Assembly: GCF_947500995.1 (NCBI RefSeq)
Contig: NZ_CANMUA010000009.1
Coordinates: 1-64,000, forward strand
DNA from: an uncultured Serinicoccus sp.
Lineage (GTDB): Bacteria > Actinomycetota > Actinomycetes > Actinomycetales > Dermatophilaceae
Reading direction: 5' to 3'
Length of the DNA: 64,000 nucleotides
The notes under the pieces are model-generated. The model saw only the letters and a list, made by a program, of their open reading frames with translations, searched no databases and was not told the origin of the DNA. Position 1 is the stretch's first letter; each line of letters opens with the position of its first letter. A program made the position numbers and the translations under genes. This document shows positions 8,180 through 64,000 of this stretch, in pieces.

Positions 8180-8794
8180 TCAGTCGAGGACTTCACGCAG
8201 GAGGGTGGTGACCCGGGCCTGGAGGTCGTCGCGGATGTCGCGCACGGTGGCGAGGTCGGCGCCCTCGGGATCCGGGACGGTCCAGTCCTCGTAGCGGCGC
8301 CCCGGGTAGATCGGGCAGGCGTCGCCGCAGCCCATGTTGACGATGACGTCGGCCGCGCGGGTCACGGAGTCGGTCAGCGGCTTGGGGTATGCCTCGGTCA
8401 GCGAGATGCCTCGTTCGGCCAGGGCCTCGACGACCAGGGGGTTGATCTCCCGGGAGGGTCGTGAGCCGGCCGAGCGCACGTGCACCCGCCCGCCGGACAG
8501 GTGCTCGGCCAGGGCGGCGGCCATCTGTGAGCGTCCGGCGTTGTGCACGCACACGAAGAGCAGCTCGGGGACCTTCTTGGTGATGCGACCCTCGGCCTGG
8601 GCCGCAGCGCTGAGCCGCTCGCGGGCGTCCTTGGCGACGAGCACCGGGAGGAAGGTGTGGATGGTGGAGACGGCGTCGAGCCGTTGCCAGGCCTCCTCGA
8701 CGGCGAGCTGGACCGACTCACGGGGGAAGATCCCCTCGTAGGTGTAGGTCAGGTCGTCGACGATGGCGGTGTAGGCCGGCACAGATGTGGTCAT
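8180..8794 (-). CDS. arsC: Arsenate reductase with N-terminal three-helix-bundle domain
   Basis: A 204-residue protein with two parts. Residues 1-75 form a helical domain like the three-helix-bundle dimerisation domain found ahead of some actinobacterial ArsC proteins; residues 76-204 are an LMW-phosphatase-type ArsC with C82-x5-R88 and the MGCGDACPIYPGRRYEDW segment. The start ATG 8794 overlaps the acr3 stop (ATGA) and has an AGGAAAG site. The catalytic half is similar to, but clearly diverged from, the 7715-8149 enzyme, so the two are paralogues rather than a recent duplication. The helical domain may control dimerisation or partner choice (inference). Confidence 0.92.
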   Translation of the reverse strand: MTTSVPAYTAIVDDLTYTYEGIFPRESVQLAVEEAWQRLDAVSTIHTFLPVLVAKDARERLSAAAQAEGRITKKVPELLFVCVHNAGRSQMAAALAEHLSGGRVHVRSAGSRPSREINPLVVEALAERGISLTEAYPKPLTDSVTRAADVIVNMGCGDACPIYPGRRYEDWTVPDPEGADLATVRDIRDDLQARVTTLLREVLD

Positions 8795-9882
8795 GGTCTT
8801 TCCTGGGTAGGGATCGGATCCCTGGCCCCGGATCGGCGGCGCAGGGCCAGTGATACGTAGACGAGGGCCACGAGCACAGGGACCTCGATGAGGGGGCCGA
8901 CGACACCGGCCAGCGCCTGGCCGGACGTCACTCCGAACGTGGCGATGGCGACGGCGATGGCGAGCTCGAAGTTGTTGCCCGCGGCGGTGAACGCCAGGGT
9001 GGTGGTGCGCTCGTAGCCCAGCCCGAGTGCGACTCCGAGGGCGTAGCCGCCGCCCCACATGATGGTGAAGTAGGCCAGGAGGGGGAGGGCGATCCGGGCG
9101 ACGTCCAGGGGCTGGCTGGTGATGCGCTCGCCCTGCAGCGCGAAGAGCAGCACGATGGTGAACAGCAGCCCGAGCAGGGCGAAGGGGGAGATGCGGGGCA
9201 GGAAGGTGTTCTCGTACCACTCCCGGCCCTTCGTCCGCTCGCCCAGGGTGCGGGAGAGGTAGCCGGCCAGCAGCGGGACCCCGAGGAAGACCAGCACGGA
9301 GACGGCGATCTGGGTGAAGGAGGCCTCCAGGGCGGTCTGCTCGAGGCCGAGCCAGCCGGGTAGGACGGTCAGGTAGAACCACCCGAGCCCGGCGAACGCG
9401 ATGATCTGGAAGAGCGAGTTGAGCGCGACGAGCAGGGCGGCGGCCTCACGGTCCCCGCAGGCGAGGTCGTTCCAGATGATGACCATGGCGATGCACCGGG
9501 CGAGGCCGACGATGATGAGGCCGGTGCGGTACTCGGGCAGGTCGGGCAGGAGCAGCCACGCGAGGGCGAACATCAGCGCGGGGCCGAGGACCCAGTTGAG
9601 GACCAGCGAGCCCGCCAGCAGCCGGCGGTCGGAGGTCACGGCGCCGAGACGGTCGTAGCGGACCTTGGCCAGCGGGGGGTACATCATCACCAGCAGCCCG
9701 ATGGCGATGGGCAGCGAGATGCCGTGCAGCTGCACGGCGTCGAGGGCAGCGCCCAGGCCGGGGACCGTGCGACCGAGGGCGAGACCCAGGATCATCGCGA
9801 GCCCGATCCAGGCGGGCAGGTAGCGGTCGAGGGGGGAGAGCCTGCCGGCCACCTGCTCCGGCGCGTGCTGGACCGTCGTCAC
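8791..9882 (-). CDS. acr3: Arsenite efflux transporter, ACR3 family
   Basis: A 363-residue membrane carrier with about ten transmembrane segments. The conserved ACR3 stretch around residues 135-155 (ARCIAMVIIWNDLACGD) contains the cysteine needed for arsenite binding in this family. It exports As(III) with proton exchange. The start is GTG 9882, overlapping the arsI stop (GTGA); its own stop overlaps arsC (ATGA). The tight overlaps make arsI, acr3 and arsC one translation-coupled operon. It is often named arsB, but ACR3 is a different family from E. coli ArsB. Confidence 0.95.
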   Translation of the reverse strand: MTTVQHAPEQVAGRLSPLDRYLPAWIGLAMILGLALGRTVPGLGAALDAVQLHGISLPIAIGLLVMMYPPLAKVRYDRLGAVTSDRRLLAGSLVLNWVLGPALMFALAWLLLPDLPEYRTGLIIVGLARCIAMVIIWNDLACGDREAAALLVALNSLFQIIAFAGLGWFYLTVLPGWLGLEQTALEASFTQIAVSVLVFLGVPLLAGYLSRTLGERTKGREWYENTFLPRISPFALLGLLFTIVLLFALQGERITSQPLDVARIALPLLAYFTIMWGGGYALGVALGLGYERTTTLAFTAAGNNFELAIAVAIATFGVTSGQALAGVVGPLIEVPVLVALVYVSLALRRRSGARDPIPTQERP

Positions 9883-10346
9883 TCGTGGGCACCTGCGGGT
9901 GTGCAGCACGCCGGGGTGGACTCCAGGACCGGGATGGAGGCCGTGGCCGGCCGGGCGTCCTGGGGGTTCTCGTCCTTGACGACGTAGACCTCCCACGGCG
10001 CCCCGGCCGGGTCGTGCACCCACACCTTGTCCTGCAGGGCGTAGCAGCAGGTCGTGTCGGTCTCGTCGAAGGTGGCCAGTCCGCTGTCGGTCAGGCGGGC
10101 GCGAGCCCCGGCCACCTCCTCGACGCTGTCGACCTCGACGCCGAGGTGGTTCAGGGCGCCCTTCGCGCCGGTGCCGCGGGTGGCACCGTCGGTCTGGATG
10201 AGCACGAGCTTGAGCGGGGGTTCGCTGATCGCGAAGTTCGCGTAGCCCGGGCGGCGCTTGTGCGGGCCGACGCCGAAGAGGGTGGAGTAGAAGTCGACGG
10301 ACGCGTCGAGGTCCACGACGTCGAGAGCGAGCTGGACGCGGCTCAT
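9879..10346 (-). CDS. arsI: ArsI/CadI-family glyoxalase-fold dioxygenase (C-As lyase)
   Basis: A 155-residue VOC/glyoxalase-fold protein. The vicinal cysteine pair in TTCCYALQDKVWV, which binds trivalent methylarsenite or aromatic arsenicals in ArsI, is present, as are histidine and glutamate metal-ligand positions (LNHLG, PWEVYVV). A further C-C pair lies near the C-terminus (TPACCTP). ArsI splits the carbon-arsenic bond using Fe(II) and oxygen. Mycobacterial CadI is the same family and is induced by cadmium. It is the first gene of the operon, divergent from arsR, with an AGGAAGG site before ATG 10346. Confidence 0.88.
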   Translation of the reverse strand: MSRVQLALDVVDLDASVDFYSTLFGVGPHKRRPGYANFAISEPPLKLVLIQTDGATRGTGAKGALNHLGVEVDSVEEVAGARARLTDSGLATFDETDTTCCYALQDKVWVHDPAGAPWEVYVVKDENPQDARPATASIPVLESTPACCTPAGAHE

Positions 10347-10366
10347 GGGATCCCTTCCTGACGAAG

Positions 10367-12586: not shown

Positions 12587-13708
12587 TCAGGGGGCGAGAT
12601 CCAGCGTGGCGGTGCTGAACCGCTCCAGCGCGTCCGGCCGCACCTCGACGCCGAAGCCCGGCCCGGTCGGCACGTCCACCTCACCGTCGCGCATGACGAT
12701 CGGCTCCGTGACGTCCTCGGTGTAGAAGCGGTCCGAGCCGGAGATGTCCCCGGGCAGCACGAAGCCCGGCAGCGCCGCGAGCGCCGCGTTGGCCGCCCGG
12801 CCCACCCCGGTCTCGAGCATCCCCCCGCACCACACGGGTATGCCGTGCGCGCGCGCCAGGTCGTGGATGCGACGCGCCTCGAGGTAGCCCCCCACCCGTC
12901 CCGGCTTGATGTTGATGACGGAGGTCGCGCCGAGGGCGATGGCGTCCGCCGCCGCCTCGGCCGAGACGATGGACTCGTCCAGGCAGACGGGCGTGCGCAC
13001 CTGACGCGCGAGCTCGGCGTGCTGCCGCAGGTCGGCCTCCCCGAGCGGCTGCTCGATGAGCAGCAGGTCGGCGTCGTCGAGACGGCGGAGCAGGCCGACG
13101 TCCGCCAGGGTGTAGGCCGCGTTGGCGTCCACCTGGAAGAGCAGGTCGTCACCGAACGCCTTCCGGACCGCCCGGACCGGCACCAGGTCGCTGCCCGGCT
13201 GGATCTTCAGCTTGATCCGGGCATACCCCTGGTCCAGGAAGTCGCCCACGACGCGGACGGTCTCCTCGGCCGAGGGCTGGATGCCGACCGAGACGCCGCT
13301 GGGCACCCTCGTCCGGACCGCCCCGAGGTAGTCGGCGAAGGACAGGTCGTGGGCGCGCAGCTGGGCGTCGAGCACCGCCATCTCCAGGGCGGCCTTGGCC
13401 ATCGGGTGTCCGACGACGTGCCGCAGGTGCCAGCCGACGGTCTCGGCGGTGAGGTCCTCGACCGCAAAGAGCGCGGGCGCCAGCCAGCGGCGGGTGACCT
13501 CGACCGCACCGGAGAGGTGCTCGGCGGAGTAGAGGGGAGCCTCCATCGCCACGCACTCTCCCCAGCCGGTCACCTCGCGACCGTCGGCGGTGGAGACCCG
13601 GGCCTCCACCAGGTAGCAGCTGCGCGAGGTGGTCGTGGCGAAGGAGGTCGTGAAGGGGGAGCGCAACGGCATCTCGATGAGGTGCAGGCGCAGGCTGGTG
13701 AGCCTCAT
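12587..13708 (-). CDS. Enolase-superfamily N-succinylamino-acid racemase / o-succinylbenzoate synthase
   Basis: A 373-residue muconate-lactonising subgroup enzyme. The catalytic set is complete: K166-x-K168 (IKLKIQP), metal ligands D194 (QVDAN), E219 (LIEQP) and D244 (CLDES), and the second-face lysine K268 (INIKPGRVGG). By sequence type it is the MenC2/NSAR group, whose members make o-succinylbenzoate or racemise N-succinylamino acids. No other men gene is nearby, while the gene overlaps (ATGA) a COG3375-like acyltransferase that follows an M20 peptidase, which favours racemase as the real role. It is the last gene of the operon and convergent with pucR. Confidence 0.88.
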   Translation of the reverse strand: MRLTSLRLHLIEMPLRSPFTTSFATTTSRSCYLVEARVSTADGREVTGWGECVAMEAPLYSAEHLSGAVEVTRRWLAPALFAVEDLTAETVGWHLRHVVGHPMAKAALEMAVLDAQLRAHDLSFADYLGAVRTRVPSGVSVGIQPSAEETVRVVGDFLDQGYARIKLKIQPGSDLVPVRAVRKAFGDDLLFQVDANAAYTLADVGLLRRLDDADLLLIEQPLGEADLRQHAELARQVRTPVCLDESIVSAEAAADAIALGATSVINIKPGRVGGYLEARRIHDLARAHGIPVWCGGMLETGVGRAANAALAALPGFVLPGDISGSDRFYTEDVTEPIVMRDGEVDVPTGPGFGVEVRPDALERFSTATLDLAP

Positions 13709-14551: not shown

Positions 14552-15757
14552 TCAGTCCGCCTCCGGTCCGGGTGCCGCGGCGGCCCCGCCCGGGACGGGC
14601 GCCGCGTCGCGCAGCTGCCCGACGAGCCTGGCCAGGACCGCGGTCCGGGGCGCGATCTGGTCGACGAGCACGTGCTCGTGCTCGGCGTGGGCTCCCCCAC
14701 CGACCGCTCCCAGGCCGTCCAGGGTCGGGATCCCGGCAGCCGCGGTGAAGTTGCCGTCGGAGGCGCCGCCGACGGCGACTGCGTCAGGGACGGACAGCCC
14801 CAGCGAGGTGCAGACGTCGGCATACCTGCGCCAGAGGTCGTCGCTGTGGTGCCGCTCCATGGGGTAGCGGTTGATCTCCCCGACGGTGCGCACCTGCGCA
14901 CCCTCCTGGCGGGCTCGCAGGGCGTGCAGCCCGGTGTGCACGCGGTCCAGCTCGGCGGCCGACCCTGCGCGCACGTCGATGTCGAGGGTGGCCGCGGCGG
15001 GCACCGTGTTGGTGGTGGTCCCTCCCGCGAAGGTGGTGGGGGTGACGGTGGTGCCCTGCTCCGGGTCCGCCAGCTCGAGGATGCCGGGCAGCTGCGCCGC
15101 GAGCTCGAGCAGGGCGCTGACGCCGCGCTTCGGGTCCAGCCCCGCGTGCGCGGCCACCCCCTGCAGCTCGAGGCGGTAGCGGCTGGCGCCCTTGCGGGCC
15201 ACCTTGACGGCCCCGCCGTCGGCGGAGGCCTCCAGGACGAGGACGCCGGCCGCCCCCTGCGCGGTCTGCAGGATGAGCTCCCGCGAGTGCGCGGAGCCGA
15301 CCTCCTCGTCACCGGTGACCAGCAGGGTGACACCGTCCAGGGCCTGCGGCCCGGATCTCTCCTGGAGCAGCGCGCAGGCGTGCACCGCCATCACCAGACC
15401 GGTCAGCATGTCGAAGGTCCCCGGGCCGCGCACGACCCCGTCCTGGTGCGACCAGGGGATCCGCTCCAGGGTGCCGACAGGCCACACGGTGTCCTGGTGG
15501 CACAGCAGCAGGACCCGCGTCGGACCACCGAGGCGCAGCAGGAGGTGCGTGACCCCGTGCTCGACGACCGTCTCCGGGCGGCGACCGAGCCGCTCCTCGA
15601 CGACGTCGGCCACCACGGCGGCGCCCCGGGCCACGGCAGCGAGGTCCGCGGACGGCGACTCCACCTCCACGAGCCGGCGCAGGTCCGCCAGGAGGTCCGG
15701 CACCAGCGCGTCGGCTGCGGCCAGCAGCGGTCGGGAGGAGTCGGGTGCGGTGTTCAC
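14552..15757 (-). CDS. M20-family metallopeptidase, probable N-acyl/N-succinyl-amino-acid deacylase
   Basis: A 401-residue M20 amidohydrolase of the carboxypeptidase G2/ArgE type. Metal and catalytic residues are visible: H87-x-D89 (CHQDT), D116 (GPGTFDM), E151-E152 (TGDEEVGS), later the dimerisation-domain GVAAHAG and the C-terminal histidine region GGAHAEHEHV. It would remove the acyl group from the L-isomer at the end of the D-to-L route made by its two partners. It is first in the operon; GTG 15757 gives the best N-terminus. A role as a plain dipeptidase or glutamate carboxypeptidase cannot be excluded. Confidence 0.87.
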   Translation of the reverse strand: MNTAPDSSRPLLAAADALVPDLLADLRRLVEVESPSADLAAVARGAAVVADVVEERLGRRPETVVEHGVTHLLLRLGGPTRVLLLCHQDTVWPVGTLERIPWSHQDGVVRGPGTFDMLTGLVMAVHACALLQERSGPQALDGVTLLVTGDEEVGSAHSRELILQTAQGAAGVLVLEASADGGAVKVARKGASRYRLELQGVAAHAGLDPKRGVSALLELAAQLPGILELADPEQGTTVTPTTFAGGTTTNTVPAAATLDIDVRAGSAAELDRVHTGLHALRARQEGAQVRTVGEINRYPMERHHSDDLWRRYADVCTSLGLSVPDAVAVGGASDGNFTAAAGIPTLDGLGAVGGGAHAEHEHVLVDQIAPRTAVLARLVGQLRDAAPVPGGAAAAPGPEAD

Positions 15758-19456: not shown

Positions 19457-21067
19457 ATGCGAACGCTTCGCAACAGGTATGCCGCCCCTCTCTCCTCCGC
19501 CGTCGTCGCCGGCCTGCTGCTCGCGGGCTGCACCGACCCGACCACGACCCCGTCCGGGGACGACGAGGGAGCCGCCGCCACGTCCTCCGGCGCGACCGAG
19601 GTCGTCGTCGCGACGGGCGGGGAGCCGGACAGCTTCAACCCGGTCCTGGGCTACGCGCGGTGGGGCGACGGCAAGATCGTGGAGGGGCTCGTCCGGCTCG
19701 GCGCCGACCTCGAGCCCGAGCCGGTCCTGGCGCAGGAGCTGCCCGAGGTCTCGGCGAACGGCCTCACCTACACCGTCACCCTCCGGGACGGCGTGACCTT
19801 CCACGACGGGCAGGAGCTCACGGCGCAGGACGTGGTCGCGACCTACGAGGCGGCCCTGGACCCGGAGAACGGGTCCCCCGTGGCCGCGGACCTCACCGCC
19901 CTGGAGTCGGTCGAGGCCGTGGACGAGCGCACCGTCCGCTTCACCCTGGCGCACCCCCAGTCCGCGTTCGTCACCACCACCACCCTCGGCATCCTCCCGG
20001 CGGGCCAGGTGGACGCGACCTCGCCGGAGGACGTCGTCGGCACCGGCCCCTACCAGGTCGACGGCTACCGGGCGGGCGAGCGCCTGGCGCTCACCGCCAA
20101 CCCCGACTACTGGGGCGAGCAGCCCGAGGTCACCAGGGCCACCTTCCTGTTCGTCGACGACGACGCGGCCCGCGCCGCCCGGCTGGCCTCCGGCGAGGTC
20201 GACGCCGCGCTGCTGCCGGCGCAGGCGCTGGGGCGCTTCGAGGACGACGGGGCCTACGACGTGGTGCGGCGGGACACGGCCGACTTCCGCGCGCTGGTGA
20301 TGCCCGAGGAGGGCGAGGTGACCGGCGACCCGGCCATCCGCGCGGCCCTGCACCAGGGCCTGGACCGGCAGGCGCTGGTCGACGGCGCCCTGGCCGGCGC
20401 CGGGCGCCCGGCCTACGGGCCGATCCCGCCCGAGGCCCCCGAGTACTCGGACGTGGTCGAGGTCGAGGTGGACCCGGGCGCCGCGCAGCAGGGCCTCGAG
20501 GAGGCCGGCTGGGTCGAGGGCGCCGACGGGGTCCGCGAGAAGGACGGGCAGCGCGCCGCCTTCACCCTGATGTACCCGGCGGGGGACACCCTGCGCCAGA
20601 ACGTCGCCCTCGACGTGCAGGCCCAGGCCGCCGAGCTCGGCATCGAGGTCGAGCCGGAGGGCCTGAGCTGGGAGGCGATCGAGCCGCGGATGGCCAGCGA
20701 CGCTCTCGTCTACGGCAGCGGCAACCCCTATAACGCCGACCTGTCGACCTACCCCCTCTTCCACTCCAGCCGCGCCTTCCAGGGCTTCGACAACCCCGGA
20801 GGCTACGACTCCGCCGAGATGGACGCGGCCCTCGAGGCGGGCCGGGCCGCGCAGGAGGAGTCCGAGCGGGTGGAGGCCTACGCCACGGTGCAGGAGCAGC
20901 TCGCGCAGGACCTGCCGTGGGTGTTCCTGGCCTACGTCGAGCACGACTACGTCATCGAGTCGGACACCTGGGAAGGGTATGACGTGCCCCTCGTCGAGCC
21001 GCACGAGCACGGTCTGCAGGGTGGACCCTGGTGGAACCTCCCGTCGTGGACGATCGCGGGCGGGTGA
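19457..21067 (+). CDS. ABC transporter substrate-binding lipoprotein (peptide/nickel class, SBP_bac_5)
   Basis: A 536-residue family 5 binding protein. The signal peptide ends in a lipobox LLLAGC, so the mature protein is anchored to the outer face of the membrane by its cysteine. Family 5 features include the early DSFNPVLGYARWGDGKIVEGL and TYTVTLRDGVTFHDG motifs and NPDYWG. The class binds di-/oligopeptides, nickel complexes or opines, and the ligand cannot be chosen from sequence. ATG 19457 is the only start giving a proper signal peptide. It is first in an operon with two permeases and one fused ATPase. Confidence 0.93.
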   Translation: MRTLRNRYAAPLSSAVVAGLLLAGCTDPTTTPSGDDEGAAATSSGATEVVVATGGEPDSFNPVLGYARWGDGKIVEGLVRLGADLEPEPVLAQELPEVSANGLTYTVTLRDGVTFHDGQELTAQDVVATYEAALDPENGSPVAADLTALESVEAVDERTVRFTLAHPQSAFVTTTTLGILPAGQVDATSPEDVVGTGPYQVDGYRAGERLALTANPDYWGEQPEVTRATFLFVDDDAARAARLASGEVDAALLPAQALGRFEDDGAYDVVRRDTADFRALVMPEEGEVTGDPAIRAALHQGLDRQALVDGALAGAGRPAYGPIPPEAPEYSDVVEVEVDPGAAQQGLEEAGWVEGADGVREKDGQRAAFTLMYPAGDTLRQNVALDVQAQAAELGIEVEPEGLSWEAIEPRMASDALVYGSGNPYNADLSTYPLFHSSRAFQGFDNPGGYDSAEMDAALEAGRAAQEESERVEAYATVQEQLAQDLPWVFLAYVEHDYVIESDTWEGYDVPLVEPHEHGLQGGPWWNLPSWTIAGG

Positions 21068-22936: not shown

Positions 22937-24564
22937 GCGGCCAGGGGTATGCCGAGGGCCGGGACCTCGGCCCGCCCGCCTCGCGGACGGCCGGCCCGGG
23001 CGGCCCGCCCGAGGGGGGGCCGACCGGCGGGCTGCGGGTGAGCGGACTGGGGGTGGCTCTGCCCGACGGTCGGGGTGGGCACCAGACGGTGCTGGAGCTG
23101 GTGGACCTCCGGGTGCCGCGCGGTCGCCTCGTCGTGCTCCTCGGGCCCAGCGGAGCGGGCAAGTCGACGCTGCTGGCCGCCCTGCTGGGCCTGCTGCCGA
23201 CCGGCTCCCTGGTGCGCGGGCACGGATGGTGGGAGGCGGACGGGGCCGAACCGGTCGACCTCGTCGACCCCGGTGCAGCGGCGCGCGAGCGGCTGCGGGG
23301 CCGGGTGGCGGCGTGGCTGCCGCAGGCCCCGGTGGGTGCCATGACCCCGGTGCTCACCGTCGGCCACCACCTCACCGAGAAGGCCCGGGTCCACGTCCCG
23401 GCCTCGCGGGTCCCGGCCGTGGTGGGGGAGGTGATGCGCCGGCACGACGTCGACCCCGCCTGGCGCCGTCGGCTGCCCTCCCAGCTCTCCGGCGGGCAGG
23501 CGCAGCGCGTGTCCAACGCCCTGGCCCTGCTCGGGGACCCGGGACTGGTGCTGGCCGACGAGCCCACGACCGGCCTGGACCGGCCCCGGGCCCGCGCCGC
23601 GGCGGACGGGCTGGCGGCCCTGGCCCACGACGAGGGGCGGGCCGTGCTCGTCGTGACCCACGACCTGCGGCTGGCGGAGGAGGCCGCTGACGCGGTCATC
23701 GAGCTCGACGGGGGGCGCTCCCGCGGCGCGGACGTGCCGGTCGGTGAGGTGATCGCCCGGGCCCGCGGCGCCAGCCACCGCATGGCCCCGCACGCCACGA
23801 CGGGTCAGCGGCTGCAGGCCGCCGCGGTCCGACCGCCGGCCGCCGCCGCCCAACGGCCGGACACCACCCCTGCTGGCCCGGGGCTGCAGGCCTCCGCCGA
23901 GGACCCCGGCACCGGGGAGGGCCCCGGCCTCGGGGCCGTCGACCTCACCCTGCGGCGAGGGCGGGGCACGCTGGTGCGCAGCGGCGTGACGCTGCAGGTC
24001 CGACCGGACCGCACGACCGGCCTCATGGCACCCTCCGGCGCCGGCAAGACGACGCTGCTGCGCACGCTGGCGCTCCTGCACCGGCCCTCCGAGGGTCAGG
24101 TCCGCCTGGACGGGCGCCCGGTCCGCGGCACCGGGTATGCCGTGCCCGCCGCCGTGCGCCGCCGCATCGCCTTCGTGCCGCAGGACCCGCGGCAGGGTGT
24201 CGACCCCCGGTGGACCCTCGGGCGGAGCCTGCTCGAGCCCTCCCGGCTGGTGGGGCGGACCGGTGACGACACGGAGGTCGCCCGGATGCTGGACCGGGTG
24301 GGCCTGGCCCCCGAGCTCGCGAGCCGCCGGCCGGACGAGGTGTCCGGGGGACAGCTCCAACGGGCCGTGCTCGCCCGGGCCCTGGCGCTGGACGCCGACT
24401 ACCTCCTGCTGGACGAGCCGACCTCCATGGTCGACGCGGCCACCGCCCGGGCGGTCGTCCGGGCCGTGCACGAGCACCAGCACGCGACCGGGTGCGGGGT
24501 GCTGGTCGCCTCGCACGACGAGGAGCTCCTGCGCACCTGGTGCGACGTCGTCGTCGAGTGGTGA
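22933..24564 (+). CDS. Fused double ATPase of the peptide/nickel ABC importer (DppD-DppF type)
   Basis: A 543-residue protein with two nucleotide-binding domains in one chain. Domain 1: Walker A GPSGAGKST, signature LSGGQAQR, Walker B LVLADEPTTGLD, H-loop VTHD. Domain 2: Walker A APSGAGKTT, signature VSGGQLQR, Walker B YLLLDEPTSMVD, H-loop ASHD. A roughly 55-residue Ala/Pro-rich linker joins them around 285-335. The canonical system uses two separate ATPases, so this is a fusion. GTG 22933 overlaps the permease stop (GTGA). Both sites look catalytically complete. Confidence 0.93.
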   Translation: MSGQGYAEGRDLGPPASRTAGPGGPPEGGPTGGLRVSGLGVALPDGRGGHQTVLELVDLRVPRGRLVVLLGPSGAGKSTLLAALLGLLPTGSLVRGHGWWEADGAEPVDLVDPGAAARERLRGRVAAWLPQAPVGAMTPVLTVGHHLTEKARVHVPASRVPAVVGEVMRRHDVDPAWRRRLPSQLSGGQAQRVSNALALLGDPGLVLADEPTTGLDRPRARAAADGLAALAHDEGRAVLVVTHDLRLAEEAADAVIELDGGRSRGADVPVGEVIARARGASHRMAPHATTGQRLQAAAVRPPAAAAQRPDTTPAGPGLQASAEDPGTGEGPGLGAVDLTLRRGRGTLVRSGVTLQVRPDRTTGLMAPSGAGKTTLLRTLALLHRPSEGQVRLDGRPVRGTGYAVPAAVRRRIAFVPQDPRQGVDPRWTLGRSLLEPSRLVGRTGDDTEVARMLDRVGLAPELASRRPDEVSGGQLQRAVLARALALDADYLLLDEPTSMVDAATARAVVRAVHEHQHATGCGVLVASHDEELLRTWCDVVVEW

Positions 24565-27493: not shown

Positions 27494-27611
27494 GCGCCCC
27501 AGTCTAGGCGCGCCCCGGTATGCCCGCCCGCGGGCGTGAGGGACGGCATACCACGGGGTGCGGCGCCCCCAGGGGAGCGGGAGGCCCGGTGAGTCGGATC
27601 CGGAAACGACC

Positions 27612-30696: not shown

Positions 30697-30828
30697 CCTG
30701 TGCACGGATATGTACATGGTGCACAGGTTCTACCGCCTGCACAGGCTGCATCAGCGTGTACAGGTGGGGGTGGGGCGCCTGTGACGTGCTCAGGTATGCC
30801 GGGGGCGCGGCCGCGGGAGGTGCACAGG
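30697..30828. repeat. TGTGCA-type intergenic element, copy 2
   Basis: CCTGTGCA at 30697 is answered by TGCACAGG at 30720, 30738 and 30821 and by the variant TGTACAGG at 30757. It shares GTGCACGGAT, AGGTTCTAC and GGTGGGGGTGGGGCGC with copy 3. It fills most of the 308-bp gap 30617-30924 between the divergent AbiEi-like and P450 genes, and carries two GGTATGCC octamers (near 30793 and 30828). Confidence 0.75.
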
Positions 30829-36465: not shown

Positions 36466-36527
36466 GGCATACCCCGGACGGGTGTGCGGCGGCTGCCCGA
36501 CCGGCGTCCACCGGGTCCCGCGCGAAG

Positions 36528-42087: not shown

Positions 42088-43221
<1,134 letters not shown>

Positions 43222-52853: not shown

Positions 52854-53768
52854 GTGCCCGAGCTGCCCGAGGTCGAGGTCGTCCGTCGAGGGCTCGCCGA
52901 GCACGTCGTCGGCCGCCGGATCCGCACCGCCCACCTGCTCGGCCAGCGGGTCGCCCGGCGGCACGAGGGCGGGCCGGCCGACCTGTCGGCACGGGTGTCC
53001 CGCGCCAAGGTCCTCGCGGCCGACCGGCGCGGCAAGTACCTCTGGCTGGTCCTGGACCCCCCCGACGACGACCCGCACGCCCTCGTCATGCACCTCGGGA
53101 TGAGCGGCCAGCTGCTCGTGGAGCCGGCGGACGCGCCGCGGGAGAAGCACCTGCACGCCACCCTCGACTTCGACGACGACGGCCCGCAGCTGCGCTTCGT
53201 CGACCAGCGCACCTTCGGCGGCCTGGCCCTCACCCCGCTCCTGCCCGACGTCCACCGCCGGGCCGTCGGGCCCGGGTCAGGGCCGGCGCACGGGCACGGC
53301 ATACCGCAGCCGGTCGCCCACATCGCCCCCGACCCGCTCGAGGACGCCTTCGACCGGCCGACCGTCATCCGGACGATGAAGTCCAAGAACGTCGCGGTGA
53401 AGAGGCTGCTGCTGGACCAGGGCGTCGTCAGCGGCATCGGCAACATCTACGCCGACGAGGCGCTCTGGCGCGCCGGGGTGCACGGCCGACGCCCCGCCTC
53501 GGCACTGACCCGCCCCGCGATCGGTCGCCTCCTGGACCACGCGGCCGAGGTCATGCGCGAGGCGCTGGGCCAGGGCGGCACCAGCTTCGACGCGCTCTAC
53601 GTCAACGTCAACGGCGCCAGCGGCTACTTCGACCGCTCGCTGGACGCCTACGGCCAGACCGGCCGCCCGTGCGCACGCTGCGGTACCGCCATCCGGCGCG
53701 AGGAGTTCATGAACCGCAGCTCGCACTACTGCCCGCGGTGCCAGACCGTGCCGCGGGCCCGCACCTGA
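52854..53768 (+). CDS. mutM: Formamidopyrimidine-DNA glycosylase
   Basis: A 304-residue Fpg/Nei glycosylase. The catalytic N-terminal [13 protein letters not shown] (Pro1 after Met removal) and Glu2 are present, with K in [13 protein letters not shown] and the C-terminal zinc finger CARCGT...CPRCQ. It removes 8-oxoguanine and ring-opened purines. A Gly/His/Pro-rich insert lies at about 140-155 ([11 protein letters not shown]). Confidence 0.95.
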
Positions 53769-55426: not shown

Positions 55427-55534
55427 CCCGCCGGTGGGCCGGGCGGACGGCCGCGCGGCGGCGCTGCGGCGGCATACCCGCCAGGTATGTTGGCGGACGA
55501 GCCGTCCCGGGAGCCGAGAGCGAAGAGCAGGTCG

Positions 55535-58500
55535 ATGTACGTCAAGAGCCTCACCCTCAAGGGCTTCAAGTCGTTCGCCTCGGCGACGACGATGCGGCTG
55601 GAGCCGGGCATCACGTGCATCGTCGGACCCAACGGGTCGGGCAAGTCCAACGTCGTCGACGCGCTCGCGTGGGTCATGGGGGAGCAGGGGGCCAAGAGCC
55701 TGCGCGGCGGCAAGATGGAGGACGTCATCTTCGCCGGGACCTCGGGACGCCAGCCGCTGGGACGCGCCGAGGTGTCGCTGACCATCGACAACACCGACGG
55801 CGCGCTGCCGATCGACTACACCGAGGTGACCATCACCCGGACGATGTTCCGCACCGGGGGCTCGGAGTACGCCATCAACGGCACCTCCTGCCGGCTCCTG
55901 GACGTGCAGGAGCTGCTCTCCGACTCCGGCATCGGGCGGGAGATGCACGTCATCGTCGGCCAGGGCCAGCTCGACCAGGTCCTCCGGGCCACCCCCGAGG
56001 AGCGGCGCGGCTTCATCGAGGAGGCGGCCGGGGTGCTCAAGCACCGCAAGCGCAAGGAGCGCGCGCTGCGCAAGCTGGAGACGATGGAGGGCAACCTCAC
56101 CCGCCTGGCCGACCTCACCTCCGAGATCCGTCGCCAGCTGGGCCCGCTGGGGCGACAGGCCGAGACCGCGCGACGGGCCGCGACCATCCAGGCCGAGGTC
56201 CGGGACGCCCGGCTGCGGATCCTCGCCGACGACCTCGTGCAGCTGACCAGCGCGCTCGAGCAGGAGATGGCCGACGAGCGGGCGCTCGTCGAGCGGCGCA
56301 CGGCGGTGCAGGAGGCGGCGCGGGCCGCCGACGCCCAGGTCGCCGGGCTCGAGCAGGAGCGCGCGGCCGCGGCCCCGGCGCTCACCGAGGTCCAGGACCG
56401 GTGGTACGCCCTGTCTTCGCTGCTGGAGCGCGTGCGCGCCCTGGGCGACCTCGCCGCCGAGCGGGTCCGGCTGCTCGGGGCGGAGGAGGAGGACCTGGCC
56501 GCCGAGGAGAGCGGCCGGTCGCGCCGTGGCCGGGACCCCGAGGAGCTGCGCGCCCAGGCCGCGCGGGTGCGCCAGGAGGAGGCGGACCTGCAGGCGAGGG
56601 TGGCCGAGCTGGCGCAGACGCTCGCCGACGCCGAGACCGCGCGCGCCGGGGCCGAGGACGCGCACGCCCAGGAGCAGGCGCGGCTGCAGCGGCTGGCCCG
56701 CGCCGCCGCCGACCGGCGCGAGGGTCTGGCCCGGCTCACCGGACAGGTCGCGGCGCGGCGCTCGCGGGTCGAGGCCGGGGAGGGTGAGATCGCCCGCTTG
56801 CAGCAGGTGGCCGTGGCCGTCGTCGAGCGGGCGGAGAAGGCCGAGCGAGACTTCGCGGCGCTGGAGGGCACCGTGCTCGACGTCGAGCACGGCGAGGAGG
56901 GGCTGGACGAGCACTACGAGCAGGCGGAGGAGCGCCGGGGCGAGGCCGAGGCGGAGGTCGAGCAGCTCACCGAGGAGGTGCGCGAGGCGCACGCCGAGCA
57001 GGCCCGCTGGCAGGCCCGCGTCGAGGCGCTGTCGATGAGCCTGCGGCGCACCGACGGCGCCAGCGCGCTGCTGGCGGCCGACGACGTGCAGGGGCTGCGG
57101 GGCACGGTGACCGACCAGCTCCAGGTGGAGGCGGGCCGCGAGGGCGCCGTGGCGGCCGCCCTCGGGTGGGCCGGTGAGGCGCTGGTCGTCGACGGTCTCG
57201 AGCCGGCCCGGGAGGCGCTGGCGTGGCTGCGCGAGGAGGACCAGGGACAGGCCGGTCTGCTCGTGCCCGAGCTCGTCGCGGGGGAGGCGGAGGACCGCTC
57301 GGGATGGCCGGACCTGCCGGGGTATGCCGTGTGGGCCGCCGACACGGTCCGCGCCCGGGACGGCGACGAGGCCCTGCTGCGCGCCGTCACCGGGCTGCTC
57401 GCCCGGGTGGCCCTCGTGCGGGACGCCGACGATGCCGCCCTGCTCGTGCGGGCCCTGCCCGGCGTCACGGTCGTGACCCCGGAGGGCGACGTCTACGGCC
57501 CCGGGTGGCTCCGCGGCGGATCCTCCGCGGCGCCCAGCCTGCTCGAGCTCACCTCGGCGCTGGAGGAGGCCCGGACCGGGGTGGCCGAGGCGGTGGCCCG
57601 CGCGGAGCGGGCGACCTTCGCGCTGGGCTCGGCCCGCGAGGACTTCGAGTCGGCACGGCGGGCGGCGGACCAGGCGCTCGACGCCCTGCACGACTCCGAC
57701 GCCCGGATGACGGCGGTCGCCGAGCAGCTCTCCCAGCTCGGGCAGACCATGCGCACCGCCCGCGCCGAGCACGAGCGCGCCACCACCGCGATCACCACCG
57801 CGGAGGAGTCCCTCGCGACCACCCGCCAGGAGCTCGCCGAGCTCGAGCAGCGGCTCGCGGACGCCGAGGAGCTCGCCACCCAGGAGGGCACCGACGACCC
57901 GGACACCACGCAGCGGGAACGCCTGGCCGAGGAGGCCGCCCGGGCCCGCAGCGCGGAGACCGAGGCCCGGCTCGCGCTGCGCACCCAGGAGGAGCGCGTC
58001 ACCGCGCTGGCCGGGCGCGCCGACAGCCTGGAGTCCGCGGCGGCCGGCGAGCTGGCCGCGCGCCGCCGCGCCGCCGAGCGCCGCGAGCGCCGCGCCCGGG
58101 AACGGGCGACGGCCCAGGCCGTGGGCGTGGGGGCGGCATACCTGCTGGAGCGCTGCACGGCCGTGCTCGAGGAGGCCACGGAGGAGCGGGAGCGGGTGCG
58201 GGCCGAGCAGGCCGAGCGCGACCAGGCGCTCGCGGCGGCCCGGCAGCGCGCCCGCGAGCTGGCCGACGACCTGCGCGACCTCACCGACTCCGTGCACGCC
58301 GACGAGATCGCCCGGGCCGAGCAGCGGCTGCGCATCGAGGCGCTTCAGACGCGCTCCGTGGAGGAGCTGGGGGTGCCCCCGGAGACGCTGGTGGAGGAGT
58401 ACGGCCCGCACCTGCCCGTGCCGCACATCCCCGGGCCGGACGACCCCGCGCCCGAGGACCCGGACGCCGAGGCGCCCGAGCCGCAGCCCTTCGTCCGTGA

Positions 58501-59197
58501 GGTGCAGGACAAGCGGCTGCGCCGCGCCGAGCGCCAGCTCGCGCAGCTCGGCCGGGTCAACCCCCTCGCGCTGGAGGAGTTCGCGGCGCTCGAGGAACGG
58601 CATACCTTCCTCACCGAGCAGGTGGAGGACCTACGGCGCTCCAAGGAGGACCTGCTGGAGATCGTCCGTTCGGTGGACGAGCGGGTCGAGCGGGTGTTCA
58701 CCGAGGCCTTCCACGACACGGCCGCGCAGTTCGAGCGGGTCTTCTCCCGGCTCTTCCCCGGCGGCGAGGGGCGCATCACCCTCACCGACCCCGAGCACAT
58801 GCTCACCACCGGCATCGAGGTGGAGGCCCGCCCCCCGGGCAAGAAGATCAAGCGGCTCTCGCTGCTGTCCGGCGGGGAGCGGTCGCTGACCGCCGTGGCG
58901 CTCCTCGTGGCGATCTTCAAGGCCCGCCCGAGCCCGTTCTACATCATGGACGAGGTCGAGGCGGCGCTCGACGACACCAACCTCGGTCGCCTCATCACGC
59001 TCTTCGAGGAGCTGCGCGACTCCAGCCAGCTCATCGTCATCACCCACCAGAAGCGGACGATGGAGATCGCCGACGCCCTCTACGGCGTCTCGATGCGCGG
59101 GGACGGCGTGACCACCGTCGTCAGCCAGCGCATCAAGGACGTCGCCGCCGACGGGGTCGAGCCCCCCGCGCGCTCGCCCGAGCCGGCCCCGGCATGA
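55535..59197 (+). CDS. smc: Chromosome segregation protein SMC
   Basis: A 1220-residue condensin ATPase. N-terminal Walker A GPNGSGKSN (about 32-40), long coiled coils with a central hinge (about 500-660), and C-terminal signature LSGGERSLTA with Walker B FYIMDEVEAALDD. It folds at the hinge and joins head domains with ScpA/ScpB. ATG 55535 gives the family start MYVKSLTLKGFKSF. It ends with an ATGA overlap with the next gene. No scpA/scpB here. Confidence 0.97.
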   Translation: MYVKSLTLKGFKSFASATTMRLEPGITCIVGPNGSGKSNVVDALAWVMGEQGAKSLRGGKMEDVIFAGTSGRQPLGRAEVSLTIDNTDGALPIDYTEVTITRTMFRTGGSEYAINGTSCRLLDVQELLSDSGIGREMHVIVGQGQLDQVLRATPEERRGFIEEAAGVLKHRKRKERALRKLETMEGNLTRLADLTSEIRRQLGPLGRQAETARRAATIQAEVRDARLRILADDLVQLTSALEQEMADERALVERRTAVQEAARAADAQVAGLEQERAAAAPALTEVQDRWYALSSLLERVRALGDLAAERVRLLGAEEEDLAAEESGRSRRGRDPEELRAQAARVRQEEADLQARVAELAQTLADAETARAGAEDAHAQEQARLQRLARAAADRREGLARLTGQVAARRSRVEAGEGEIARLQQVAVAVVERAEKAERDFAALEGTVLDVEHGEEGLDEHYEQAEERRGEAEAEVEQLTEEVREAHAEQARWQARVEALSMSLRRTDGASALLAADDVQGLRGTVTDQLQVEAGREGAVAAALGWAGEALVVDGLEPAREALAWLREEDQGQAGLLVPELVAGEAEDRSGWPDLPGYAVWAADTVRARDGDEALLRAVTGLLARVALVRDADDAALLVRALPGVTVVTPEGDVYGPGWLRGGSSAAPSLLELTSALEEARTGVAEAVARAERATFALGSAREDFESARRAADQALDALHDSDARMTAVAEQLSQLGQTMRTARAEHERATTAITTAEESLATTRQELAELEQRLADAEELATQEGTDDPDTTQRERLAEEAARARSAETEARLALRTQEERVTALAGRADSLESAAAGELAARRRAAERRERRARERATAQAVGVGAAYLLERCTAVLEEATEERERVRAEQAERDQALAAARQRARELADDLRDLTDSVHADEIARAEQRLRIEALQTRSVEELGVPPETLVEEYGPHLPVPHIPGPDDPAPEDPDAEAPEPQPFVREVQDKRLRRAERQLAQLGRVNPLALEEFAALEERHTFLTEQVEDLRRSKEDLLEIVRSVDERVERVFTEAFHDTAAQFERVFSRLFPGGEGRITLTDPEHMLTTGIEVEARPPGKKIKRLSLLSGGERSLTAVALLVAIFKARPSPFYIMDEVEAALDDTNLGRLITLFEELRDSSQLIVITHQKRTMEIADALYGVSMRGDGVTTVVSQRIKDVAADGVEPPARSPEPAPA

Positions 59198-61670: not shown

Positions 61671-62612
61671 CTACGAGTCGTGAACCGGGCCGGTCCGGTC
61701 CACCACGGCTGAGCTGGTCGGAGCGTTCCGGGGGTCCTCCGGGCTCGCCAGCGCCCATCCGACCGCGGCGGTGCCGAGCCGGCCCAGCGGGTCCAGGAGG
61801 GTCAGGGCGGCCGGCTCGAGCGGGCGCAGGGGGCCGGGCAGGTGCAGGTCGAGCAGGTCACGGGCATACCCCGGCAGCAGGGTGAGCGCCCCCGCGGCCA
61901 GCATCCAGAAGCCCGGTCGGGCGGTCCACGGGAGCGGCGGCTCGGCCAGCAGGAACCGGGCCACGTCCCGTGCCCCGTCGCTGGCCTCCAGCTCGGGGCG
62001 GTATGCCGTGAGCGCCTGCTCGAGCTCCTCGACCGACCGTGGTGGGTCGAGGACACCGAGCTGCCCGGCGGCCCACGAGGTCTGCGCCACGTAGGTGTCG
62101 GCCTCGGTCGCCGTCAGCGGCGTGCGGGCGTAGTGCTGGTGGGCGCGCAGGAAACTGTCGATCTCCGCGACGTGCACCCAGCGCAGCAGGTGGCTGTCGG
62201 TGGCGGCGTACGGGCGACCGTCGGCGGCGGTGCCGACGACGGTCCGGTGCACCCGGTTGATCCGGTCGAGGACCCGCTCTGCCGCGTCGACCGGGCCGTA
62301 GGTCGTCATCGCGATGAACTCGCTGGTGCGCTGCAGCCGCCCCCACGGGTCGCCGCGGTAGCCGGAGTGCTGACCGACCCCCGCCATGGCCAGCGGGTGC
62401 AACGACTGGAGGAGCAGCGCGCGGATGCCGCCGGCATACATCCCCCCGTGCCCGTGGACCCGGCAGATCGGGTCGTGGGGGGCGAAGCGGCGGGGCCCCG
62501 GGGCGAGCCAGACGGCCTGGGCCCGGCGCGGGGCGTCGGCCCCGGCGACCCGGTCCCGCAGCGCCAGCGACAGGCGGCGACGCGCGGCGGCGGTGAGGTC
62601 GGAGGGGGTCAC
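61671..62612 (-). CDS. MpaB-like oxygenase (DUF2236)
   Basis: A 313-residue DUF2236/MpaB family protein. The family core includes HGHGGMYAGGIRALLLQSLHPLAMAGV near residue 55-80 and FIAMTTYG; the two histidine-containing segments (HSLH-type and WVHVAEIDSF) are the expected heme/metal region. MpaB-type oxygenases cleave hydrocarbon chains or polymers; here the substrate is unknown. GTG 62612 is the start. It lies on the opposite strand between ftsY and ffh, which are more often close. Confidence 0.88.
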   Translation of the reverse strand: MTPSDLTAAARRRLSLALRDRVAGADAPRRAQAVWLAPGPRRFAPHDPICRVHGHGGMYAGGIRALLLQSLHPLAMAGVGQHSGYRGDPWGRLQRTSEFIAMTTYGPVDAAERVLDRINRVHRTVVGTAADGRPYAATDSHLLRWVHVAEIDSFLRAHQHYARTPLTATEADTYVAQTSWAAGQLGVLDPPRSVEELEQALTAYRPELEASDGARDVARFLLAEPPLPWTARPGFWMLAAGALTLLPGYARDLLDLHLPGPLRPLEPAALTLLDPLGRLGTAAVGWALASPEDPRNAPTSSAVVDRTGPVHDS

Positions 62613-62693
62613 GGGTCCAGTATGCGGACGCCCCGGGCCGGTGGCGCGGCGGCCGGCGGTGGACGGGCGACGCGGCGGCGGTGCACCGGCACG

Positions 62694-62699
62694 TATCCT
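62694..62699 (+). promoter_or_regulatory. -10 box TATCCT of ffh
   Basis: TATCCT ends 7 nt before GTG 62707; leaderless mRNA expected. Confidence 0.5.
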
Positions 62700-62706
62700 T
62701 GGGCGG

Positions 62707-64000
62707 GTGTTCACCAGCCTCTCCGACCGCCTGACGCAGACCTTCCGCAACCTCAAGCGCAAGGGCACCGTCACCGAGTCCGACCTCAACTCGACCATCC
62801 GCGACATCCGGATGGCGCTGCTGGACGCGGACGTCGCGCTGCCGGTGGTCAAGGAGTTCACCGGTCGGATCCGGGAGCGCGGGCTGGGCGCGGAGGTGCA
62901 CCAGGCGCTCAACCCGGCCCAGCAGATCGTCAAGATCGTCAACGAGGAGCTCGTCGCGATCCTCGGGGGGCAGACGCGCCGGCTCAACCTGGCCAAGAAC
63001 CCGCCGACCGTCATCATGCTGGCCGGTCTGCAGGGATCGGGCAAGACGACCTTCGCGGGCAAGCTGGGCAAGTGGCTGGCCGACCAGGGGCACACCCCCC
63101 TGCTCGTCGCCGCCGACCTGCAGCGACCCAACGCCGTCACCCAGCTGGAGGTGGTCGGTCAGCGTGCCGGTGTCCCGGTCTTCGCGCCCGAGCGCGGCAA
63201 CATCTTCGGCCACGACGCCGCGATGGACTCGGGGGAGGGGACCCGGTCCTTCGGTGACCCGGTCGACGTCGCCGTCGACGGTGTCGAGGAGGCGCGGCGC
63301 AGGAGCCACGACGTGGTCATCATCGACACCGCGGGCCGGCTCGCGGTCGACGTCGACCTCATGCGGCAGGCGCACGACATCCGGCTGGAGACCCGGGCCG
63401 ACGAGGTGCTCTTCGTCATCGACGCGATGATCGGTCAGGCGGCCGTGGAGACGGCCAAGGCCTTCGCCGACGGCGTCGGGATCACCGGCTCGGTGCTCTC
63501 CAAGCTGGACGGCGACGCGCGCGGTGGTGCTGCGCTCTCCGTGGCGACGGTGACCGGGCAGCCGATCCTCTTCGCGTCGACCGGTGAGGGCGTCAAGGAC
63601 ATCGAGCTGTTCCACCCCGACCGGATGGCCTCGCGCATCCTCGACATGGGTGACGTCCTGACCCTCATCGAGCAGGCCGAGCAGGCCTTCGACCAGGCGC
63701 AGGCGAAGGAGATGACCCGCAAGTTCCTCTCCGACGAGGACTTCACCTTCGACGACTTCCTCGAGCAGATGTCGGCCATCAAGCGGATGGGCTCGCTCAA
63801 GCAGATGCTGGGCATGATGCCGGGGATGCAGGGCATGAAGGCGCAGCTGGACTCCCTGGACGAGCGGGAGTTCGACCGGGTCGAGGCCATGGTCCGGTCC
63901 ATGACGCCGCTGGAGCGAGGTCACCCGAAGATCATCAACGGCTCGCGGCGCGCCAGGATCGCCCGGGGCTCCGGCGTGAGCGTCGGCGAGGTCAACCAGC
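62707..64000 (+). CDS. ffh: Signal recognition particle protein Ffh (partial, runs off the window)
   Basis: The first 431 codons of the SRP GTPase. NG domain: G1 LAGLQGSGKTT, DLQRPNAV, IDTAGRL, SKLDGDARGG. The M domain begins around residue 325 with methionine-rich helices (MGSLKQMLGMMPGMQGM) that bind 4.5S RNA and signal peptides. A segment of roughly 15-18 residues between APERGN and GDPVDVA (about 163-180) is longer than in many Ffh proteins. GTG 62707 is the start with -10 TATCCT just before it. The C-terminus lies beyond 64000. Confidence 0.96.
   Translation, partial: MFTSLSDRLTQTFRNLKRKGTVTESDLNSTIRDIRMALLDADVALPVVKEFTGRIRERGLGAEVHQALNPAQQIVKIVNEELVAILGGQTRRLNLAKNPPTVIMLAGLQGSGKTTFAGKLGKWLADQGHTPLLVAADLQRPNAVTQLEVVGQRAGVPVFAPERGNIFGHDAAMDSGEGTRSFGDPVDVAVDGVEEARRRSHDVVIIDTAGRLAVDVDLMRQAHDIRLETRADEVLFVIDAMIGQAAVETAKAFADGVGITGSVLSKLDGDARGGAALSVATVTGQPILFASTGEGVKDIELFHPDRMASRILDMGDVLTLIEQAEQAFDQAQAKEMTRKFLSDEDFTFDDFLEQMSAIKRMGSLKQMLGMMPGMQGMKAQLDSLDEREFDRVEAMVRSMTPLERGHPKIINGSRRARIARGSGVSVGEVNQ

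What the first reader, a model, noticed from the sequence alone, without database searches (positions are those of the whole stretch)
8386..64000. Over-represented octamer GGTATGCC/GGCATACC, written through rare codons
By eye I count about two dozen exact copies of GGTATGCC or GGCATACC from 8386 to the end (for example near 8386, 12836, 13221, 14820, 19478, 22947, 24136, 27518, 27546, 30793, 35004, 35230, 36467, 40102, 42218, 44125, 53299, 55471, 57322, 58136, 58600, 61863, 61999), about equally on both strands, in genes and gaps. Base composition near 72% GC predicts only about two. In genes it forces TAT, GCA or ATA codons that the surrounding genes avoid (GGC ATA CC in mutM, GCA TAC in smc, TAT GCC in ddl). 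This looks like a HIP1-like genome-wide motif: an architecture, restriction/methylation or repair-linked sequence. I know of no description of it in this group.
Basis: partly seen in the sequence, partly recalled or inferred. Interest (0 to 1): 0.8.

Follow-up and report, generated by a model that had tools for sequence, protein, structure and literature searches.

The report
Genome-wide orientation-read octamer in actinobacteria
An actinobacterium related to Serinicoccus carries about 1,400 copies of one short DNA word spread through its genome in both directions and held in place by evolution; many relatives share it or use variant spellings, and copies facing the same way avoid being close together, which points to a directional DNA-handling signal whose function is not yet known.

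Summary
The window holds 24 exact GGTATGCC/GGCATACC, 12 per strand, against 0.56 expected; the genome holds 1,415 against 8 reversed controls. The excess survives codon shuffling (160 in genes vs 13).

The core GTATGCCG is abundant in 30 of 31 genomes of the genus and in 21 of 40 other genera of the family, and is at background in 46 genomes of other families. Two low-copy genera instead carry GGATGCCG at about 3,800-3,900 copies.

Sites are held in place: 108 of 141 are identical in a relative at 84% identity, vs 32-37% of controls. Two 40-kb insertions, one shown to carry phage genes, hold few.

New: same-orientation sites avoid each other within ~1 kb, opposite ones do not (146 vs 255 expected; 290 vs 260); none of 405 control octamers does this. 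E. coli Chi, in a small sample, behaves likewise. I infer directional reading, most likely by the end-resecting enzyme AdnAB. Chi's strand polarity is absent, so it is not filed as Chi. Uptake sequence and methylation mark remain rivals; the mechanism is unproven.

The parts
8386..8393 (+). GGTATGCC site
12837..12844 (+). GGTATGCC site
13220..13227 (-). GGTATGCC site
14819..14826 (-). GGTATGCC site
19476..19483 (+). GGTATGCC site
22946..22953 (+). GGTATGCC site
24134..24141 (+). GGTATGCC site
27517..27524 (+). GGTATGCC site, left arm of an inverted pair; both arms lie between the genes called
27545..27552 (-). GGTATGCC site, right arm of the inverted pair
30793..30800 (+). GGTATGCC site, first of a same-orientation pair 34 bp apart (rare arrangement)
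30827..30834 (+).
35003..35010 (+). GGTATGCC site
35229..35236 (-). GGTATGCC site
36466..36473 (-). GGTATGCC site
40100..40107 (-). GGTATGCC site
42218..42225 (+). GGTATGCC site
44124..44131 (-). GGTATGCC site
53298..53305 (-). GGTATGCC site; exact in 17 of 20 scored genomes of the genus (window included)
55471..55478 (-). GGTATGCC site
57321..57328 (+). GGTATGCC site inside the smc gene (55487-59197; SMC_N and hinge domains); exact in 13 of 19 scored genomes
58135..58142 (-). GGTATGCC site inside smc; exact in 13 of 19 scored genomes
58599..58606 (-). GGTATGCC site inside smc
61863..61870 (-). GGTATGCC site
62000..62007 (+). GGTATGCC site; exact in 12 of 18 scored genomes

Best explanation
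The octamer is the commonest form of a genome-wide signal (G)GTATGCCG(T) that is read in one orientation along the DNA and is kept about every 1-4 kb on each strand independently. Shown: strong excess, both strands, positional maintenance, lineage variants around a shared core, scarcity in two large insertions (one with phage genes), and mutual exclusion of same-orientation copies within about 1 kb with no exclusion between opposite copies. Inferred: a second copy facing the same way within ~1 kb is useless, as expected if a motor tracks along one strand and responds to the first copy. The most likely reader is the end-resecting helicase-nuclease of actinobacteria, AdnAB, with the site working like Chi: it tells the enzyme that the DNA is self, stops degradation and starts recombination. 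AdnAB as reader is an inference from distribution; no binding or activity was tested.
For: Same-orientation pairs under 1 kb: G000 30 vs 73.6 expected, opposite 86 vs 74.5; G007 109 vs 170.5, opposite 192 vs 171.3 (sums of the bins; G007's region is syntenic with G000's, so not independent). Pooled over G000 and seven other genera: same 146 vs 254.8, opposite 290 vs 259.9. 0 of 405 control octamers of similar abundance reach the motif's ratio 0.41, and 2,000 shuffles of the orientation labels never reach it in either genome. E. coli Chi in 400 kb (76 sites): same-orientation pairs under 1 kb 3 vs 9.2, 2 of 147 control octamers as low. Sites maintained: 108 of 141 identical in G007 vs 31.6% of random and 36.7% of 371 composition-matched octamers; TAT, ATA, GCA kept 29/34, 17/20, 24/33 in the motif vs 40/79, 2/8, 42/268 outside. 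Sharp recognition in part of the family: one-mismatch neighbours of GTATGCCG at 0.85-0.89 of expectation in 5 of 8 samples while the exact word is about 14- to 49-fold over. G000 has two adjacent frames of 1,075 and 1,245 codons, each with UvrD helicase and PDDEXK_1 nuclease domains, the AdnAB arrangement (the name is from recall); PDDEXK_1 is matched in 44 of 44 genomes of the family examined. 17 of the 21 high-copy genera outside the genus have no RecC match, so RecBCD cannot be the common reader. Insertions in comEC: 4 and 2 GTATGCC in 40 kb each vs 20 and 18 in flanks of equal size.
Against: No strong strand polarity: 12/12 in the window, 99/82 in 400 kb, 139/117 in G007; known Chi is polarised on the leading strand (PMC8022716, passages). 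Genes of the 400 kb without alignment in the G007 stretch are not depleted (0.54 vs 0.51 sites per kb), against a core-genome bias. PDDEXK_1 proteins of AdnAB size also occur in genomes of other families of the order that lack GTATGCCG; they would need other words, which I did not establish. In G000 itself one-mismatch neighbours are mildly in excess (1.17), as in G007 (1.35) and G069 (1.30). The exclusion is weaker above 200 bp in G007 and weak in G033 (67 vs 83.6). AdnAB of the genus member without the word (G023) is no more diverged than its other proteins. From recall, mycobacterial AdnAB has no known Chi. The E. coli yardstick is small, and its opposite pairs (3 vs 4.7) are too few to compare.
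Confidence: 0.37

Rival explanations
1. DNA uptake sequence for natural transformation: an exposed receptor prefers DNA with the word, and biased uptake plus recombination makes it accumulate (molecular drive). Dialects around a conserved core would mirror Neisseriaceae DUS (recalled).
For: comEA-like and comEC genes adjacent in G000 (comEA named by eye from its C-terminal helix-hairpin-helix-like sequence); ComEC in 109 of 117 genomes; T2SSE-family ATPases, the family of Tad/Flp pilus motors, in 117 of 117; Flp/Tad pili serve competence in the actinobacterium M. luteus (PMC6370729, passages). Lineage variants, no strand bias, density of one per 1-3 kb, excess between genes, inverted pairs, scarcity in two insertions. 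G036, which has only one weak T2SSE match (1.8e-4), lacks GTATGCCG. One-mismatch forms mildly in excess in G000, G007 and G069.
Against: Uptake by USS does not depend on orientation and only one site per fragment counts (PMC1939737, passages), so exclusion should not depend on orientation; here it does. One-mismatch forms are not in excess in 5 of 8 samples, whereas some mismatched USS are over-represented (PMC1939737, passage). No PilM (type IVa pilus) match in G000. ComEC is found as well in 43 of 46 genomes of other families without the word. No uptake data.
Confidence: 0.28
2. Target of a conserved DNA methyltransferase (HIP1-like), perhaps marking one strand only because the site is asymmetric; the mark would be used in repair or replication timing and needs regular spacing on each strand.
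For: HIP1 word changes track methyltransferase changes in cyanobacteria (PMC4390886, passages). Sharp recognition such as GTATGNCG in G033 (37/34/16/15 for C/A/G/T) and nearly strict GTATGCCG elsewhere looks enzyme-like. An asymmetric one-strand mark would explain independent spacing on the two strands without polarity.
Against: No methyltransferase was searched for; no methylation calls; flanking preferences at the first G and last T are graded, unusual for a methyltransferase.
Confidence: 0.15
3. Binding site of a nucleoid-structuring protein that spaces the chromosome.
For: Genome-wide spread, CV of spacing 0.85-0.89 in G000 and G007, positional conservation.
Against: Exclusion depends on orientation, and inverted pairs are common at short distance; there is no obvious reason for an architectural protein to show this.
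Confidence: 0.07
4. By-product of codon, dipeptide or mutational bias without function.
For: Stretches that look recently acquired (two insertions, first 8.4 kb of the window) have few or none, as slow mutational accumulation would also give.
Against: Codon-preserving nulls, excess between genes, retention of otherwise unstable rare codons and orientation-dependent spacing.
Confidence: 0.03

Closest known systems
Chi sites (RecBCD/AddAB; E. coli GCTGGTGG)
   Same: Non-palindromic octamer, genome-wide excess, same-orientation exclusion under 1 kb also seen for E. coli Chi here in a small sample, variant words in related taxa (for Chi: PMC8022716, passages), scarce in two insertions.
   Different: No leading-strand polarity seen; same spelling in genera with and without RecC; no core-gene bias seen; denser (one per about 1-2.7 kb, against one per 5 kb for Chi, PMC8022716).
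DNA uptake sequences (Neisseria DUS, Pasteurellaceae USS)
   Same: Density, both strands, non-palindromic, lineage variants with a conserved core, inverted pairs, scarcity in inserted DNA.
   Different: Orientation-dependent spacing (not checked on USS/DUS genomes); no excess of mismatched forms in 5 of 8 samples; no competence data found for this family.
HIP1 (GCGATCGC) of cyanobacteria
   Same: Octamer-sized word, high copy number across a clade, with other words taking over in some lineages (PMC4390886, passages).
   Different: HIP1 is palindromic; a link to methyltransferases is reported there, untested here.
KOPS / FtsK orienting sequences
   Same: Short directional words (recalled).
   Different: KOPS are strongly skewed by replichore (recalled); here strands are near equal.

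Membership tests
Chi site | Statistical over-representation | tested here: met
Chi site | Polarised on the leading strand / consecutive sites on the same strand | tested here: not met
   12/12, 99/82, 139/117; neighbouring sites alternate, 354 same vs 632 opposite within 2.5 kb (includes redundant orthologous loci). The replication origin was not mapped.
Chi site | Enriched in core genome | tested here: inconclusive
   Two insertions depleted, but 48 genes unaligned to the G007 stretch hold 0.54 sites/kb vs 0.51 in 277 aligned genes
Chi site | Recognised by RecBCD (RecC) | tested here: not met
   17 of 21 high-copy genera outside the genus have no RecC match; within the genus RecC is matched in 30 of 31 genomes, so a role there is not excluded
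Chi site | Orientation-dependent action on a helicase-nuclease | not testable with these tools
   Only indirect: same-orientation exclusion
DNA uptake sequence | Over-represented, both strands, no strand bias | tested here: met
DNA uptake sequence | Preferential uptake by competent cells | not testable with these tools
DNA uptake sequence | Competence machinery present | tested here: met
   ComEC, T2SSE-family ATPases; type IVa PilM not matched in G000
DNA uptake sequence | Orientation-blind spacing expected from uptake drive | tested here: not met
   expectation from PMC1939737 (passages). Not verified on real USS/DUS genomes.
HIP1 | Palindrome | tested here: not met
   GGTATGCC is not its own reverse complement; extended consensus GGTATGCCGT
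HIP1 | Overlaps targets of conserved orphan methyltransferases | not tested
   No methylation data, no methyltransferase search
KOPS | Strong replichore skew | tested here: not met

The most novel reading that the evidence does not exclude
A previously undescribed class of directional genome signal: an asymmetric word that must occur every few kilobases on each strand independently, with no replichore polarity, whose spelling drifts across an actinobacterial family (and into a second family of the order). It would be either the first recombination signal read by AdnAB or a one-strand mark (for example asymmetric methylation) that tells old from new strand in bacteria that, from recall, lack MutS/MutL.
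Probability: 0.35. Interest if true: 0.92.

Novelty: new variant of a known kind. Interest (0 to 1): 0.78.

Why it matters
Chi, uptake sequences and HIP1 are among the few known genome-wide DNA words, and I found none established in actinobacteria in the searches listed. This one is strong, can be followed across dozens of sequenced species, exists in spellings that should co-vary with the reader protein, and has a spacing rule that narrows the mechanism to something that reads one strand in one direction. It makes two questions testable: whether actinobacterial AdnAB answers to a Chi-like signal, and whether any actinobacterium has DNA uptake sequences.

Tried and rejected
ComEC presence does not follow the motif; the apparent truncation of ComEC in G023 is a contig end (L105 is an 8,504-base contig). 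PilM and T2SSE counts do not follow it, except that G036 has only one weak T2SSE match and also lacks GTATGCCG. RecC does not follow it. G023, the one genus member without the word, was first thought a recent loss; over 7,145 aligned bases near smc it is only 78.6% identical, and its AdnAB-like proteins and a 263-residue part of RecC are not unusually diverged (differences -0.05 to -0.11 against -0.01 to -0.14 for nine window proteins), so it gives no natural experiment. G023 does show GTAGCGGC at 44 vs 11 in 118 kb with 1 same-orientation pair under 1 kb vs 5.1 and 8 opposite vs 5.5: a possible further spelling, too few to claim. Clustering into hairpins as terminators was considered: inverted pairs exist (27517/27545), and opposite pairs at 8-50 bp are 4 vs 3.2 in G000, 6 vs 7.3 in G007, 18 vs 7.8 in the six other genera. 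Words of G036 (GGAGNCGG), G054 (CGTACGYC), G067 (CGAAGGGGG), G040 and G070 are over-represented but do not show clear orientation-dependent exclusion, so I do not claim they are the same system; G056's GGATGCCG (24 vs 36.8 same, 36 vs 37.9 opposite) is the clearest variant. G031's GGATGCCG (1,336 copies) shows no exclusion (15 vs 10.7).

Literature: the paper search. The octamer strings hit 400 and 596 papers, of which 15 each were listed; the listed titles and abstract starts are unrelated to genome-wide motifs. Papers cited (PMC1939737, PMC7811141, PMC6370729, PMC4390886, PMC6452273, PMC8022716) were seen as passages only.
Full report
Observation. The window contains 24 exact GGTATGCC/GGCATACC, 12 per strand, all from 8386 onward, against 0.56 in dinucleotide-preserving shuffles. 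The genome in which the window lies (3,805,170 bases, 45 contigs) holds 752 + 663 copies against 4 + 4 for the reversed word. In 464 kb of it (window plus 400 kb of contig 1) there are 205 against 8.6 expected; the consensus extends to GGTATGCCGT (88 against 0.5), and all 103 TATGCCGT are GTATGCCGT. Synonymous shuffling within genes predicts 13.2 where 160 are seen; 92 of 157 TAT and 29 of 43 ATA codons of the sampled genes belong to the motif. The density between genes is about 2.3-fold higher (39 of 199 sites).

Who has it. By the smc protein (SMC_N and hinge domains) the nearest named genomes are Serinicoccus kebangsaanensis (89% identity) and Ornithinimicrobium pekingense (79%); equal contig lengths indicate that G027 and G001 are these two records. 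From recall this is the Dermatophilaceae of GTDB (Intrasporangiaceae and Ornithinimicrobiaceae of other schemes). Among 117 genomes, GGTATGCC is at 285-2,180 copies in 30 of 31 genomes of the genus, G023 (38) being the exception, and at 3-123 in the 46 genomes of other families of the order. The core GTATGCCG is at 394-1,901 in 30 of 31 of the genus; of 40 other genera of the family (one genome each) 21 have 939-4,724 copies, three are weak (196-293) and 16 are at background (7-111).

Spellings. In 60-kb samples GTATGCCG is nearly strict in G037, G062, G047 and G069, and in 24 kb of Terrabacter; G033 and Flexivirga accept any base at the sixth position (GTATGNCG: 37, 34, 16, 15 for C, A, G, T in G033); G007 relaxes the last position. 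G056, at background for GTATGCCG, has GGATGCCG at 3,949 copies (reversed control 289), G046, weak for GTATGCCG, 3,816 (control 392); outside the family G106 has 4,491 (159) and G090 1,548 (184); most of the 117 genomes have a few hundred. Thus at least part of the apparent absences is a change of spelling. Other low genomes show other enriched words, but these do not clearly follow the spacing rule below, and I leave them open.

Maintenance. In 326 kb aligned between G000 and G007 at 83.9% identity, 108 of 141 aligned sites are identical, against 31.6% of random octamers and 36.7% of 371 non-motif octamers of the same strong/weak pattern. Codons TAT, ATA and GCA are kept 29/34, 17/20 and 24/33 within the motif and 40/79, 2/8 and 42/268 outside. 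In the region around smc, compared with 20 further genomes of the genus, site 53298 is exact in 17 of 20 scored genomes and sites 57321 and 58135 in 13 of 19 each (window included), while other sites come and go. So single sites are held, with turnover.

Inserted DNA. In G002 and G018 comEC is split by about 40 kb of inserted DNA; in G002 two of seven frames searched match phage tail and tape-measure proteins; G018's insertion was not searched. They hold 4 and 2 GTATGCC against 20 and 18 in about 40 kb of flanks. The first 8.4 kb of the window (HepT-like protein, two-component system, TetR regulator, dehydrogenase, beta-lactamase-family hydrolase, low-molecular-weight phosphatase family) has none. 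But 48 genes of the 400 kb that do not align to the G007 stretch are not depleted (0.54 against 0.51 per kb), so a general core-genome bias is not shown.

The spacing rule. Pairs of sites in the same orientation are scarce below 1 kb: none at 50-200 bp in G000 against 11 expected, ratio 0.34-0.67 from 200 to 1,000 bp, about 1 beyond; pairs in opposite orientation are at 0.93-1.86 in all bins below 1 kb. G007 shows it strongly below 200 bp (0.12-0.14) and more weakly from 200 to 1,000 bp (0.64-0.90); the pool of six further genera shows 0.11-0.87. Pooled over G000 and seven other genera (G037, G062, G069, G047, G045, G033, G056): 146 same-orientation pairs under 1 kb against 254.8, 290 opposite against 259.9; G033 is weak (67 vs 83.6). 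Control octamers of similar abundance (405) average above 1 and none is as low as the motif; shuffling the orientation labels never reproduces it in 2,000 shuffles in either genome. No strong strand polarity goes with it: 99/82 in 400 kb, 139/117 in G007. As a yardstick, the 76 Chi sites in 400 kb of E. coli K-12 show 3 same-orientation pairs under 1 kb against 9.2, and 16 against 9.2 at 1-2 kb; opposite pairs are too few to judge (3 vs 4.7). Of 147 control octamers 2 are as low. These numbers are small.

Reading. Opposite orientations ignore each other and equal orientations exclude each other within about 1 kb. That is what one expects if something moves along the DNA, recognises the word in one direction only and needs just one per stretch. 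Haemophilus uptake does not depend on the orientation of the site (PMC1939737, passages), so a plain uptake drive should produce exclusion regardless of orientation; I could not test real USS or DUS genomes here. Mismatched forms, expected under graded uptake, are not in excess in 5 of 8 samples but are mildly so in G000, G007 and G069 (1.17-1.35). Polarity on the leading strand, used to define Chi (PMC8022716, passages), is missing, and 17 of 21 high-copy genera outside the genus have no RecC match, so this is not simply a RecBCD Chi. G000 has two adjacent frames of 1,075 and 1,245 codons, each with UvrD helicase and PDDEXK_1 nuclease domains, the first with the weaker helicase match, as in AdnAB (recalled), besides RecB and RecC. 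AdnAB was found only in Actinobacteria, where RecBCD seems not to serve homologous recombination (PMC6452273, passage). I therefore rank a Chi-like signal for AdnAB first (0.37), an uptake sequence second (0.28), a methylation mark third (0.15). The function itself remains untested.

Noticed in passing
G002:C1:1161212-1201313 (L106-L108) and G018:C46:68541-108976 (L110-L112): In two genomes of the genus the competence gene comEC is split by about 40 kb of inserted DNA; in G002 two of seven frames searched match phage tail and tape-measure proteins, so a prophage sits inside comEC (compare the comK prophage of Listeria, recalled). G018's insertion was not searched.
   Followed up: partly
G067:C1:1-80000 (L119-L122); Janibacter L006, L009: CGAAGGGGG/CCCCCTTCG is over-represented (36 vs 2.5 in 80 kb of G067; 12 vs about 1 in 47 kb of Janibacter), on both strands, without a clear spacing rule.
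   Followed up: partly
G036 sample L205-L214: GGAGCCGGT and GGAGGCGGT are each enriched about 9-fold (60 vs 6.6, 49 vs 5.7 in 180 kb) in a genome with only one weak T2SSE match; no orientation-dependent exclusion.
   Followed up: partly
G023 sample L185-L189, L105, L143: GTAGCGGC enriched about 4-fold (44 vs 11 in 118 kb) in the one genus member without GTATGCCG; same-orientation pairs 1 vs 5.1, opposite 8 vs 5.5: a possible further spelling.
   Followed up: partly
G070 L202-L204 and G053 L199-L201: Overlapping enriched words (e.g. around GTCTCGATAC and CAGTTCGACGGTCACGG) that look like families of longer interspersed repeats dominate the k-mer lists of these two samples.
   Followed up: no
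G040 L190-L192, L219-L221: Palindrome GGACGTCC counted 66 times over both strands against 9.9 in 120 kb.
   Followed up: no
window 1-8385: Motif-free stretch of lower GC (68%): HepT-like protein, histidine kinase and response regulator, TetR regulator, dehydrogenase, beta-lactamase-family (PF00144) hydrolase, low-molecular-weight phosphatase family.
   Followed up: partly
G000 L246 and other genomes: RecC matched in 61 of 117 genomes, patchily within the family, alongside AdnAB-like genes.
   Followed up: partly
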